Below the pieces are notes generated by a model that saw nothing but the letters and a program-made list of their open reading frames with translations, ran no database searches and was not told the origin of the DNA. A stretch of 35,816 nucleotides of DNA from Rhodothermia bacterium (GTDB taxonomy: Bacteria > Bacteroidota > Rhodothermia > Rhodothermales > JAAAOL01), in contig JAUIDY010000062.1 in NCBI GenBank assembly GCA_030428385.1, positions 1 through 35,816 of the forward strand, given 5' to 3'. Shown here piece by piece: positions 14,871 to 19,392 of the stretch. How positions within the stretch are numbered: the first letter of the stretch is position 1; the number at the start of each line of letters is the position of its first letter. The translations under genes and the position numbers were made by a program.

Positions 14871-15037
14871 TAAGAGGCCGTTGAGGTTTTCAGTTTGGAG
14901 CGAGCGAGATGCCCTTGTGGATGGATTTGGTCTCGACGTTGGAGGCACGTAGCAGCGCTACGGGCCGAGAACGCGGGGACAAAGACGCCACGAGGGCACT
15001 TGCGCAGCCCAAGATCACAAATCACAACAGCCTCTTA
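14871..15037 (+). repeat. MITE-like fold-back element, copy A
   Basis: A 167-base element bounded by perfect 8-base inverted ends TAAGAGGC / GCCTCTTA; the outermost TA could be a target duplication. Inside, GCCCTTGTGG can pair with CCACGAGGGC and GTAGC with GCTAC, so the whole unit can fold into one long imperfect hairpin. A second copy lies in inverted orientation at 24803-24968. The right end overlaps the moeB stop codon (TAA on the minus strand). No transposase is nearby, so it would be non-autonomous. Confidence 0.75.
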
Positions 15038-16216
15038 ATACTTCGGAATCGACGGGTCGATTTCGTCGCTCCACGCCAGGATGCCACCTTTGAGGTTGTA
15101 GAGTTTCTCAAAACCTTGCGCCTGGAGGTGCCGCAGTGCCGTCGCCGAGCGGGCACCGGAGCGACACATGAGCACAATCTCCTGGTCGCGGTAGGGCTCC
15201 AGTTCGTCGAGGCGAAACGCCAGTTCATGCAGCGGAATGATCGGCGCGCCGATGGTGGCGATGTCGGCTTCGTGGGGACGGCGGACGTCCAGCACAAACA
15301 GGTCGTCGCCCCGGTCGAGGCGTTCTTTGAGTTCGCGGACGGTAATTTCTGGAAGCGTGCTCATTTCAGTTTCTTCGGTTGAAGCGGGCGGTGTGATCCC
15401 GCAGAAAAGCTGGTAATCAATCAGTTCGGTAACGGTTGGATGCTCGCCGCAGACGGGGCAATCGGGGTTTTTGCGCACCTTCAGCGTGCGGAACTGCATC
15501 CCCAGCGTATCAATGAGGAGCAGCCGCCCGATGAGCGAGTCGCCCGCGCCCGTAATCTGCTTGATGACTTCGAGCGCCTGGATTGAACCGACGATGCCGG
15601 GTAGCACCCCCAACACGCCGCCTTCGGCGCAGGACGGTACCAATCCGGGCGGCGGAGGTTCGGCATAGAGGCAACGGTAACACGGTCCATCGGGCGCACC
15701 AAAGACCGAAGCCTGCCCCTCAAACCGAAAGATGGAGGCATACACATTGGGTTTGCCCGCCAGCACGCACGCGTCATTCACCAGATAACGCGTGGGGAAG
15801 TTATCGGTGCCGTCGGCTACGACATCATAATCTTGAATTATTTCTAGTGCATTGTCGCTGGTGAGGTGCACGGGATGGAGATCCACCTGCACGTTCGGGT
15901 TGATGTCGTGGATGCGGTCCCGTGCCGACTCCAGCTTGGGGCGGCCCACGTCTTTGGTGCCGTGCAGCAATTGGCGTTGCAGGTTCGACTCATCGACTAC
16001 ATCAAAATCGACGATGCCGATACGGCCCACGCCTGCTGCTGCGAGGTACATGCCCAGCGGTGAACCCAGCCCCCCTGCGCCTACCATCAGCACGGAGGCG
16101 GCTTTGAGCTTTTTCTGGCCTTCCATCCCCACCTCAGGCAGGATCAAATGGCGGCTGTAGCGCCGGATTTCTTCAGGACTCAGCGATATGGCAGCAGGAG
16201 CAAACGTCGTTTCCAT
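15035..16216 (-). CDS. moeB: MoeB/MoeZ-type adenylyltransferase-sulfurtransferase
   Basis: A 393-residue two-domain enzyme. The N-terminal ThiF/MoeB domain has the ATP site VGAGGLGSPLGMYLAAAG (~residues 45-62), DGTDNFPTRYLVND, and two CxxC zinc pairs (CYRC and CPVC). The C-terminal rhodanese domain has CRSGAR with active Cys351. Such fusions adenylate the C-terminal Gly of a ubiquitin-like carrier and then sulfurate it. As the gene follows the CysO-like carrier by 43 bases, the natural reading is that it charges that carrier for cysteine synthesis, as MoeZ does in mycobacteria; a role in molybdopterin or thiamin synthesis remains possible. Its stop codon lies inside the inverted end of the fold-back repeat. 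Confidence 0.94.
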   Translation of the reverse strand: METTFAPAAISLSPEEIRRYSRHLILPEVGMEGQKKLKAASVLMVGAGGLGSPLGMYLAAAGVGRIGIVDFDVVDESNLQRQLLHGTKDVGRPKLESARDRIHDINPNVQVDLHPVHLTSDNALEIIQDYDVVADGTDNFPTRYLVNDACVLAGKPNVYASIFRFEGQASVFGAPDGPCYRCLYAEPPPPGLVPSCAEGGVLGVLPGIVGSIQALEVIKQITGAGDSLIGRLLLIDTLGMQFRTLKVRKNPDCPVCGEHPTVTELIDYQLFCGITPPASTEETEMSTLPEITVRELKERLDRGDDLFVLDVRRPHEADIATIGAPIIPLHELAFRLDELEPYRDQEIVLMCRSGARSATALRHLQAQGFEKLYNLKGGILAWSDEIDPSIPKY

Positions 16217-16259: not shown

Positions 16260-16547
16260 TTATCCACCCGCGATGGACGGCACGATGGACAGCACATCCC
16301 CTGCTTGCAGCGTGGTCTGCTCGCCGTTCAGGTAGCGCACGTCGTCGTCGTTTTTGTAGATGTTAACGAACGAACGCAGGTCGCCCGCTTCGGTATAGAG
16401 GTGCGTTTTAATCTGCGGATGCAGGGTCACCAACTGCCGCAGGGCTTCGCTTACGGTTTCGCCGCTGACGCTGACGGAGGAATCACCGCCCACAAAGCCA
16501 CGCAGGGGCGTGGGGATATACAAGGTTACCGTTGTTGTTTCAGTCAT
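16260..16547 (-). CDS. cysO: CysO-like ubiquitin-fold sulfur carrier protein
   Basis: A 95-residue MoaD/ThiS-family carrier ending in the diagnostic Gly-Gly (SIVPSIAGG), the site of adenylation and thiocarboxylation. The beta-grasp pattern is clear: TVTLYIPTPLRGFVGG, VSEALRQLVTLHPQIK, FVNIYKNDDDVRYLNGEQTTLQAGDVLSI. The FVNIYKN-DDVR-L form fits CysO-type and MoaD-like carriers. The free GG end means no peptide extension needs removal first. It sits between the JAMM peptidase gene (45 bases upstream) and moeB, so its substrate role in CysM-dependent cysteine synthesis is a strong inference. Confidence 0.92.
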   Translation of the reverse strand: MTETTTVTLYIPTPLRGFVGGDSSVSVSGETVSEALRQLVTLHPQIKTHLYTEAGDLRSFVNIYKNDDDVRYLNGEQTTLQAGDVLSIVPSIAGG

Positions 16548-16592: not shown

Positions 16593-17021
16593 TTATGTTT
16601 CAGCAGTCAGGCGGACAGCTTCTGGCTCAAAGCACGAGCGGTCGGGGGCCAGCGACCACGTCGTCAACTCACCCGGGACGCCCTGCTGCACCGACACGAT
16701 GATGTACGTGAAGCCGGGAAACGTGGCATGCTCCAGATCGGTCGCGGATGGCTGTGCGGGATGGTCGGGGTGCGAATGGTAGGTGCCCACCACATCGAGC
16801 CCCAGCTGCCGCGCCGCCCGGTCGGCCTTCAGGAAATCGCCGGGGCCCATTAGAAAGCGACGCTCGCGGTTTTCTTCTTGCGCGTTTTCGATGCGGTGAA
16901 TCGTCTGCACCACATTGCCTTCTGTAGAGACAGTGCCAAGCAAAAAGCCGCAACATTCCTCCCGGTACGTCGCCGCGCCGTGGTCGCGGATGGCTTGTAA
17001 AACGTCAGCGTTTGTTATCAT
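16593..17021 (-). CDS. mec: JAMM/M67 metallopeptidase, CysO-cysteine hydrolase (Mec)
   Basis: A 142-residue zinc peptidase. It shows the JAMM motif: Glu in YREECCGFLLG (~22), then HSHP (His83, His85), Ser93 and Asp96. In the mycobacterial-type pathway Mec hydrolyses the CysO-cysteine adduct to free cysteine and carrier. The ATG overlaps the cysM stop by one base (TGATG), implying translational coupling; a TTG one codon upstream is a less likely start. It is followed by the carrier gene. The family and the gene order cysM-mec-cysO together make the assignment firm. Confidence 0.93.
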   Translation of the reverse strand: MITNADVLQAIRDHGAATYREECCGFLLGTVSTEGNVVQTIHRIENAQEENRERRFLMGPGDFLKADRAARQLGLDVVGTYHSHPDHPAQPSATDLEHATFPGFTYIIVSVQQGVPGELTTWSLAPDRSCFEPEAVRLTAET

Positions 17022-18007
17022 CAATCAAGCCCTTCCTGGTCCCAGAACGATTCACTCAGGTAACGTCCGCCGCTGTCGCACAGCACCGTCACCACCACGC
17101 CTTTTTCCAGTTCACGGGCGACATCCAAAGCTGTCGCCACCGAGGCTCCCGCCGATTTTCCGACAAACAGCCCTTCTTCTCGCGCCAGCCGCTGCGCCAT
17201 CGCGATGGCGGCTTCGGTGGAGCAGTGCCGTTCCGCATCGGCCAGCGAGGCGTCGTAGATGCCCGGCACGCGGGCCGTGGGCAGATGCTTCATGCCTTCG
17301 AGCCCGTGCAGCGGCGAATCAGGCTGAAACGAGAGGCATTGGATGTTGGGGTTTTCATCTTTGAGGCGTCGGCTCACGCCCACAAAAGTCCCCGTCGTGC
17401 CCAGCCCCGCCACAAAATGTGTCAGCGCTCCGCCCGTCTGTTCCAAGATCTCAACGGCCGTGCCATGATAGTGTGCCTGCCAGTTAGCGTCGTTGTTGTA
17501 CTGGTCCGGGTAGAAATAGCGGTCGGGCGAGGCAGCTACGATTTCCTTCACGCGCACCTGTGCGCCGTCGGTGCCTTCCATTGGATCGGTGAACAGCAAT
17601 TCCGCGCCGTAGGCTTGCAACATCCGCTTGCGCTCCGGCGAGGCGTTAGCAGGCAACGCCAGCGTCACAGGGATGTCGAGGGCGGCACACAGCATCGCAT
17701 AGGCAATGCCGGTGTTGCCGCTGGTGGCATCGATGAGCGTTTTGCCTTCGCGTAGCGCGCCGGATGCTAGCCCCGCGCGAATCATTCCGAGTGCCGCCCG
17801 GTCCTTGACGGAGCCGCCTGGATTCAGGTGCTCGGCTTTGCCATACACGGCCACGGTGTCAGGCAGATCATGGGTGACCTGTGTGAGGCGCACCAGCGGC
17901 GTGTGGCCGATCTGCGCAGCAATGCCACCAGCGAGCGCCTGCTTTTGGCGGGCCGTGTGCCGGGTGCTACGTTCTCGAAATGCAGTTTGGAGCGCCGTTG
18001 CAGGCAT
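17021..18007 (-). CDS. cysM: PLP-dependent cysteine synthase, CysM type
   Basis: A 328-residue fold-type II PLP enzyme. The PLP lysine lies in LNPGGSVKDRAA (Lys68), the phosphate or substrate loop is DATSGNTGIAYA, and the C-terminal CDSGGRYLSESFW is typical. The neighbours (Mec, CysO-like carrier, MoeB) indicate use of carrier thiocarboxylate as sulfur donor, probably with O-phosphoserine, as for mycobacterial CysM; O-acetylserine plus sulfide cannot be excluded. The start was chosen at MPATALQTAF, preceded by an AAAAGGA Shine-Dalgarno-like stretch. Upstream in-frame codons lie in the terminator's U-tract region. A Cys-rich leader frame and an attenuator hairpin precede it, suggesting control by cysteinyl-tRNA charging. 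Confidence 0.95.
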   Translation of the reverse strand: MPATALQTAFRERSTRHTARQKQALAGGIAAQIGHTPLVRLTQVTHDLPDTVAVYGKAEHLNPGGSVKDRAALGMIRAGLASGALREGKTLIDATSGNTGIAYAMLCAALDIPVTLALPANASPERKRMLQAYGAELLFTDPMEGTDGAQVRVKEIVAASPDRYFYPDQYNNDANWQAHYHGTAVEILEQTGGALTHFVAGLGTTGTFVGVSRRLKDENPNIQCLSFQPDSPLHGLEGMKHLPTARVPGIYDASLADAERHCSTEAAIAMAQRLAREEGLFVGKSAGASVATALDVARELEKGVVVTVLCDSGGRYLSESFWDQEGLD

Positions 18008-18027: not shown

Positions 18028-18061
18028 AAAAAAGCCCCTCCCGGATCAATCCAGAAGAGGC
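18028..18061 (-). terminator. Attenuator: intrinsic terminator before cysM
   Basis: On the minus strand a 12-bp stem (5' arm from GCCTCTTC, 3' arm to GGAGGGGC, several G-U pairs) with a TTGA loop is followed at once by TTTTTT. It ends only 20 bases before the cysM start and follows the Cys-rich leader frame, so it would stop transcripts before the operon. Its 5' arm (18050-18064 with flank) can instead pair with the leader segment at 18123-18137. Confidence 0.8.
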
Positions 18062-18086
18062 GCATCAGAAGCACGTAAGCGTAGGG

Positions 18087-18179
18087 TTAGACCATTCCTG
18101 TATCGCTAGCCGTTTGATCTGGCGCACCACTCCCGGAAAGTGGACAACAACAGCTACACGTACAGAAGCAGGCGCGCAT
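18087..18179 (-). CDS. Cysteine-rich leader peptide of the cysM operon
   Basis: A 30-codon frame (ATG to TAA) whose residues 4-12 read CFCTCSCCC: six cysteines in nine codons, then a Ser/Gly/Asp-rich tail without cysteine. It lies between the glutaminyl cyclase gene and the terminator hairpin before cysM. Directly after the Cys codons, CCACT and AGTGG form a small hairpin (18127-18143). The stretch at 18123-18137 pairs at 14 of 15 positions with 18050-18064, the foot and 5' arm of the terminator. By analogy with trp and his leaders, a ribosome stalled at Cys codons would free this segment to block the terminator and let cysM be transcribed. No Shine-Dalgarno site is seen, as for many genes here. 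Confidence 0.8.
   Translation of the reverse strand: MRACFCTCSCCCPLSGSGAPDQTASDTGMV
18123..18137 (-). promoter_or_regulatory. Antiterminator strand within the leader frame
   Basis: The segment TCCGGGAGTGGTGCG (minus strand) can pair with 18050-18064 at 14 of 15 positions, counting five G-U pairs, with one T-T mismatch. That pairing excludes the terminator. It competes with the short CCACT/AGTGG hairpin next to the Cys codons. Confidence 0.65.
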
Positions 18180-18203: not shown

Positions 18204-18235
18204 GAAAGCAAGCGACTAATGCAACGCCGAACAAA
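18204..18235 (-). promoter_or_regulatory. Possible promoter of the cysM leader
   Basis: TTTG, 20 bases, then TTGCTTTC (6 of 8 to TAnnTTTG) on the minus strand. A start some seven bases downstream would place the leader ATG about 18 bases into the RNA. No terminator separates the upstream glutaminyl cyclase gene, so read-through is also possible. Confidence 0.35.
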
Positions 18236-18252
18236 GTGTTCCCTGGTTGGCG

Positions 18253-19175: not shown

Positions 19176-19295
19176 CGTTCCCTCTCCCTCGATGGGAGAG
19201 GGACAGGGTGAGGGTGATTCGATAAACCGAACCGAGCGCTTGCATTGACATAGTTCCCCCTCACTCTGACTCTCTCCCGCCAGGGGAGAGAGGAC
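19176..19295. repeat. REPIN-like pair of inverted hairpin repeats
   Basis: Two GC-rich hairpins of the common CCCTCTCCC-loop-GGGAGAGGG type stand in opposite orientation. The first (19180-19202) is followed by ACAGGGTGAGGG. The second (19270-19292, CTCTCTCCC-gcca-GGGGAGAGAG) is preceded by CCCCCTCACTCTGA, the inverse counterpart. Together they resemble a REP doublet. They lie between the glutaminyl cyclase and the MBL-fold gene and could influence transcript ends. Confidence 0.7.
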
Positions 19296-19392
19296 CCGTT
19301 TGCGAAGGGAAGTATCCAGACATCAACAATTACAACATCTTGTGCTGGGAGAAAAAAAGTTTGAACTACTCATCACCCTGTTTGTGCCGCCC

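What the first reader, a model, noticed from the sequence alone, without database searches (positions are those of the whole stretch)
18028..18179. Complete cysteine attenuator before a cysM-mec-cysO-moeB operon
Seen: a 30-codon frame with six Cys in residues 4-12, a small hairpin directly after these codons (18127-18143), a 12-bp terminator with U6 ending 20 bases before cysM, and a 14-of-15 pairing between 18123-18137 and 18050-18064 that would exclude the terminator. Known: trp/his leaders work this way, and Cys-rich leaders are reported for actinobacteria as far as I recall. Inference: Cys-tRNA shortage stalls the ribosome and turns on the operon. I do not know of this layout described for a Rhodothermota/Bacteroidota relative.
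Basis: partly seen in the sequence, partly recalled or inferred. Interest (0 to 1): 0.88.

Follow-up and report, generated by a model that had tools for sequence, protein, structure and literature searches.

The report
Cysteine attenuator before a cysteine-making operon
In front of a set of cysteine-making genes lies a short RNA switch that starts with a tiny cysteine-rich reading frame and very probably turns the genes on only when cysteine runs short; the same switch sits before the same genes in every close relative checked that holds the whole gene set, and in some bacteria of three other phyla.

Summary
The genes are PALP, JAMM, ThiS-like ending in GG, and ThiF-rhodanese, i.e. the CysO thiocarboxylate route. 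Chance is excluded: no shuffle of the window gave such a leader plus terminator. The window and 17 order-level orthologs all have a Cys-run leader, a stop codon 25-39 nt before a terminator, and a segment behind the Cys codons that copies the terminator's 3' arm. This copy tracks changes in the 5' arm; re-pairing between lineages loses about 8 kcal/mol (permutation P < 1e-5). Two orthologous loci with cysM alone, and twelve of twelve paralog loci, lack it. Similar leaders with terminators occur elsewhere in Bacteroidota and in Acidobacteriota, Gemmatimonadota and Chloroflexota. I found no description of this family; cysteine attenuators are known for cysS in Rhodobacterales and, without terminators, for mycobacterial cys genes. 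So: a real classical Cys-tRNA-sensing attenuator, a new, well-conserved member of a known kind. Expression evidence is missing.

The parts
18217..18243 (-). possible ECF-type promoter GGGAAC-N18-TTA (weak in the window; relatives have GRGAAC-N17/18-GTT or GTA)
18087..18179 (-). leader ORF, MRACFCTCSCCCPLSGSGAPDQTASDTGMV
   Evidence: counterpart in 17 relatives
18144..18170 (-). regulatory Cys codons (6 Cys in leader residues 4-12)
   Evidence: chance test
18127..18143 (-). small hairpin directly after the Cys codons (1:2 candidate)
   Evidence: -6.2 kcal/mol, not better than shuffles; stronger counterparts in L005, L006, L010
18097..18137 (-). region 2: 5' strand of the antiterminator, within the leader ORF behind the Cys codons; copies the terminator 3' arm
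18050..18085 (-). 3' strand of the antiterminator (stop-to-terminator spacer plus terminator 5' arm)
18034..18061 (-). intrinsic terminator stem-loop, 12 pairs
18028..18033 (-). U6 tract of the terminator
17021..18007 (-). cysM, PLP-dependent cysteine synthase (PF00291)
16593..17021 (-). mec, JAMM protease (PF14464)
16260..16547 (-). cysO, ThiS/MoaD-like sulfur carrier ending in GG (PF02597)
15035..16216 (-). moeB/moeZ, ThiF + rhodanese (PF00899, PF00581)

Best explanation
A classical ribosome-mediated transcription attenuator that reads charged tRNA-Cys and controls the cysM-mec-cysO-moeB operon. When Cys-tRNA is plentiful the ribosome runs through the Cys codons to the stop codon, which lies in the apical loop of the antiterminator; it strips region 2 and the terminator forms, ending transcription before cysM. 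When Cys-tRNA is short the ribosome stalls on the Cys run, region 2 (straight behind the Cys codons) pairs with the spacer and the terminator's 5' arm before the 3' arm is made, and polymerase reads into the operon. Shown: the elements, their mutual exclusion, their conservation and coevolution. Inferred: translation of the leader, stalling, and the response to cysteine.
For: Elements present and beyond chance. The window and 17 order-level orthologs have a Cys run, a stop codon 25-39 nt before the terminator, and a U tract. The antiterminator reaches the terminator 5' arm in 18 of 18 and starts 0-10 nt after the last Cys codon. Cognate pairing -40.8 vs -32.4 kcal/mol for non-cognate; permutation over 11 lineages gave 0 of 100000. 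Region 2 copies region 4 through changes such as GCCCCTC/GCCTCTC/GCCGCTC and G-C to A-U. With the ribosome on a middle Cys codon and only the 5' arm transcribed, the arm pairs with region 2 at mean probability 0.81 over 24 leaders, against 0.47 for shuffled region 2 and at most 0.56 in 100 shuffled sets. At equilibrium in the window the terminator has probability 0.11 with the ribosome on Cys10 and 0.98 at the stop codon. The leader goes with the whole operon; two order relatives with cysM alone lack it.
Against: No RNA-seq, reporter or ribosome data. No convincing Shine-Dalgarno before the window's leader ATG. In several relatives equilibrium folding keeps the terminator even with a stalled ribosome, so switching there must be kinetic. 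With the ribosome on Cys12, and on some of the Cys codons before Cys10, the window's equilibrium model also keeps the terminator. The 1:2 hairpin is not generally conserved. Some relatives have few Cys codons (L016: three).
Confidence: 0.93

Rival explanations
1. Attenuation acts on translation of cysM or through Rho, as proposed for polycysteine leaders of actinobacteria, and the hairpin is incidental.
For: Actinobacterial Cys leaders lack terminators (PMC1262725) and the mycobacterial ones are described as attenuating translation (PMC9031893).
Against: A strong hairpin with a U tract at a near-constant distance from the stop codon is kept in 18 of 18 leaders, with the antiterminator coevolving.
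Confidence: 0.03
2. The ORF makes a functional Cys-rich micropeptide (metal or thiol binding); regulation by stalling is not its role.
For: Cys clusters of 3-9 residues could bind metal; the ORF is kept in all orthologs with the operon.
Against: Only the presence of clustered Cys is kept; number, spacing and flanking residues differ freely (MMLSPVHRCCCCCC, MRFITRCCCCCCPCCC, MAPEAVRCRCWCRCC), while the RNA pairing of the rest of the ORF is kept.
Confidence: 0.02
3. A ligand-binding riboswitch or T-box controls the terminator and the Cys codons are accidental.
For: The terminator/antiterminator layout alone would also fit a riboswitch.
Against: No Rfam match, even at E <= 1; the Cys run is the main shared feature outside the stems; shuffles give no such ORF with terminator.
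Confidence: 0.01

Closest known systems
uORFC-8-2 motif before cysS in Rhodobacterales (PMC8632094)
   Same: Predicted ribosome-mediated transcription attenuation with Cys codons in a uORF and an intrinsic terminator.
   Different: Controls cysteinyl-tRNA synthetase, usually two tandem Cys codons near position 14-15, Alphaproteobacteria only; a different gene, lineage and structure.
Cys-rich leaders before cys operons and cbs in Actinobacteria (PMC1262725) and polycysteine leaderless sORFs of mycobacteria (Canestrari 2020, seen only as cited in PMC9031893 and PMC13236596)
   Same: Runs of Cys codons in a short ORF before cysteine genes; cysteine-responsive.
   Different: No terminator found; leaderless translation; described as translational or possibly Rho-dependent. 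Here an intrinsic terminator and antiterminator are conserved.
trp/his-type ribosome-mediated attenuators
   Same: Regulatory codons, antiterminator 2:3, terminator 3:4, order of parts.
   Different: Cognate amino acid is Cys; the ORF runs through region 2 and its stop codon lies in the loop of the antiterminator; 1:2 hairpin not generally conserved.
SigH control of mec-cysO-cysM and moeZ in M. tuberculosis (PMC4803200)
   Same: Same pathway genes; promoter consensus GGAAYR-N17/18-GTT resembles the GRGAAC-N17/18-GTT/GTA found upstream of the relatives' leaders.
   Different: A promoter-level control; no SigH-family sigma factor passed the cut-off in six order genomes.

Membership tests
Ribosome-mediated transcription attenuator (trp/his type) | Short leader ORF with a start codon and clustered codons for the pathway's amino acid | tested here: met
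   six Cys codons in the window, 3-9 in the main cluster of relatives
Ribosome-mediated transcription attenuator (trp/his type) | Intrinsic terminator between leader ORF and first gene | tested here: met
   18 of 18 leaders of the order
Ribosome-mediated transcription attenuator (trp/his type) | Mutually exclusive antiterminator placed behind the regulatory codons | tested here: met
Ribosome-mediated transcription attenuator (trp/his type) | 1:2 (anti-antiterminator or pause) hairpin | tested here: inconclusive
   better than shuffles in L005, L006, L010 and L014; present but not significant in the window
Ribosome-mediated transcription attenuator (trp/his type) | Downstream genes make the sensed amino acid | tested here: met
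   cysM, mec, cysO, moeB-rhodanese by family; the pathway itself is known from mycobacteria (PMC3227635)
Ribosome-mediated transcription attenuator (trp/his type) | Read-through rises on starvation for the amino acid | not testable with these tools
   needs RNA-seq or reporters
uORFC-8-2 (cysS attenuator) | Lies before cysS, tandem Cys codons near position 14-15 | tested here: not met
   lies before cysM; Cys codons 4-12
Mycobacterial/actinobacterial polycysteine leaders | No intrinsic terminator found | tested here: not met
   terminator present and conserved
Mycobacterial/actinobacterial polycysteine leaders | Leaderless mRNA (start codon at the 5' end) | not testable with these tools
   start site of the mRNA not known
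Any Rfam 15 family | Match to a covariance model | tested here: not met
   no match

The most novel reading that the evidence does not exclude
A widespread, undescribed family of cysteine transcription attenuators tied to the CysO thiocarboxylate pathway in at least four phyla, which in the window's order is stacked behind a thiol-stress ECF sigma promoter, so that the operon responds to both an oxidative signal and a shortage of Cys-tRNA, matching the SigH logic of the same genes in M. tuberculosis.
Probability: 0.35. Interest if true: 0.68.

Novelty: new member of a known kind. Interest (0 to 1): 0.52.

Why it matters
Cysteine attenuators with a complete, conserved terminator and antiterminator are hardly described; this one is well supported by comparison and controls the protein-thiocarboxylate route to cysteine, known mainly from mycobacteria. 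It gives these bacteria a direct gauge of Cys-tRNA, is testable in a cultured relative, and adds leaders missed by Rfam in several phyla.

Tried and rejected
Plus-strand reading of 18028-18179: no Cys ORF and no stable fold; the feature is on the minus strand. Search of seven genomes for four tandem Cys codons to find further Cys leaders: up to 117 matches per genome, often no more than the reversed-pattern control, too noisy to use. SigH-family sigma factor in six genomes: only generic ECF factors, none over the cut-off; an RsrA-like zinc anti-sigma motif beside the best ones gave no convincing hit. A covariance model was not built because the leaders looked too divergent for a sound alignment; an alignment-free cross-pairing test was used instead. 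The paper of Canestrari 2020 is not held.

Full report
What is there. The feature lies on the minus strand, between a glutamine cyclotransferase gene and cysM. From 5' to 3': a 30-codon ORF (18179-18087) with Cys at residues 4, 6, 8, 10, 11 and 12; a small hairpin behind the Cys codons (18143-18127); a 12-bp hairpin followed by U6 (18061-18028); and cysM from 18007. The antiterminator is larger than the finding says: 18137-18050, -35.9 kcal/mol, z -4.05, no shuffle as good, against about -20 to -21.5 for the terminator. The leader's stop codon falls in its apical loop. The whole leader folds better than shuffles (z -2.31). Sixty shuffles of the window gave no Cys-rich ORF followed by a terminator.

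The genes. Pfam gives PALP, JAB, ThiS and ThiF plus rhodanese; the ThiS-like protein ends in GG. This is the set known from mycobacteria as CysM, Mec, CysO and MoeZ, where MoeZ makes the CysO thiocarboxylate, CysM joins it to O-phosphoserine and Mec releases cysteine (PMC3227635).

Conservation. A search of 60 relatives, nearly all of the same order, gave 19 CysM homologs of 60 to 73% identity besides the window's own. Seventeen of these have a Cys-run ORF and a terminator upstream, making 18 with the window; leaders include MMLSPVHRCCCCCC, MRFITRCCCCCCPCCC, MPFLRTILACCCAMCCC and MRELVSIATCCCPACCC. The stop codon lies 25-39 nt before the terminator in each. Twelve leader-bearing order loci in which the downstream DNA was read (L130-L137, L142, L146, L006, L008) all have the order cysM-mec-cysO-moeB; the two orthologs that lack a leader (L021, L023; read again as L143, L144) have cysM without the other three genes behind it. 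Twelve of twelve loci of more distant matches (36-42% identity, L002, L003, L024-L033) lack a leader. One relative, with a chromosome of 3,261,604 bp, fits Rhodothermus marinus DSM 4252 (total 3,386,737 bp with a 125-kb plasmid, PMC3035238); this is an inference from length.

Alternative structures. In all 18 the segment behind the Cys codons pairs with the spacer and terminator 5' arm, starting 0-10 nt after the last Cys codon. Pairing each lineage's region 2 with every lineage's region 3 gave -40.8 kcal/mol for true pairs and -32.4 for false; of 100000 permutations over 11 lineages none did as well. Letter by letter, region 2 copies region 4. With the ribosome on a middle Cys codon and the 3' arm not yet made, the 5' arm is already taken by region 2 with mean probability 0.81 in 24 leaders, against 0.47 for shuffled region 2. 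The value at the stop codon in that test is zero by construction and is no evidence. At equilibrium the switch is sharp at one codon in the window (0.11 at Cys10, 0.98 at stop) and over several Cys codons in one relative genus, but weak in others, where it would have to be kinetic. The 1:2 hairpin is not general.

Wider spread. Other families of the same phylum have the same design (L116, L118, L129), with the full operon (L138-L140). A sampled survey found leaders with terminators in Gemmatimonadota (L189, L198), Acidobacteriota (L237, L242, L250, also L063) and Chloroflexota (L062), while most CysM loci there have none that my scan could see. Whether these share ancestry or arose repeatedly was not tested. 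The pairing in L237 and L250 covers only part of the terminator arm.

Promoter. Upstream of the leader, 17 of 18 orthologs have GAAC-N17/18-(G/T)T(A/T), and the strict form GRGAAC-N17/18-GT(A/T) occurs 10 times in the 18 loci, only at ten of these leaders. It resembles the SigH consensus of M. tuberculosis, which directly controls mec-cysO-cysM and moeZ (PMC4803200). The window's own copy is weak, the sigma factor was not identified, and part of the motif could be a primary-sigma element, so this is a lead only.

Known or new. Cys leaders without terminators were predicted in Actinobacteria (PMC1262725) and shown to respond to cysteine in mycobacteria (as cited in PMC9031893). A cysS attenuator with terminator is described in Rhodobacterales (PMC8632094). 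Full-text searches of the open library found no description for this operon or these phyla; subscription papers are not covered. I therefore call it a new member of a known kind.

Noticed in passing
window 18243-18217 (-) and the 170 nt upstream of the leader in L005-L019, L022: Conserved GRGAAC-N17/18-GTT/GTA motif resembling SigH/SigR thiol-stress promoters, in 17 of 18 loci in a loose form.
   Followed up: partly
L129, about 421 to 120 nt upstream of cysM: Two Cys-rich leaders in tandem (MKWQKVHMACCCCLFWWSERR and MYCAQWTFCCAACCARFPFRKGGG), each followed by a terminator-like hairpin: possible tandem cysteine attenuators.
   Followed up: partly
L237: Acidobacteriota cysM with a Cys-run leader (MSIETSVKCTCCCCITCACCGAGG) and terminator but no mec, cysO or moeB found in the stretch held.
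   Followed up: no
L015, L017, L019: The leader has a further in-frame ATG upstream; which start is used is unclear.
   Followed up: no
window 5974 (+): A second short ORF with clustered Cys (MGSITTSTSALRWWTTSRSTCCTCATCGCG...), without terminator; probably chance.
   Followed up: no
window 19180-19300: CCCTCTCCC-type sequences in both orientations (ccctctccctcgatgggagagggacagggtgaggg and ccctcactctgactctctcccgccaggggagaga) lie near the start of the glutamine cyclotransferase gene.
   Followed up: no
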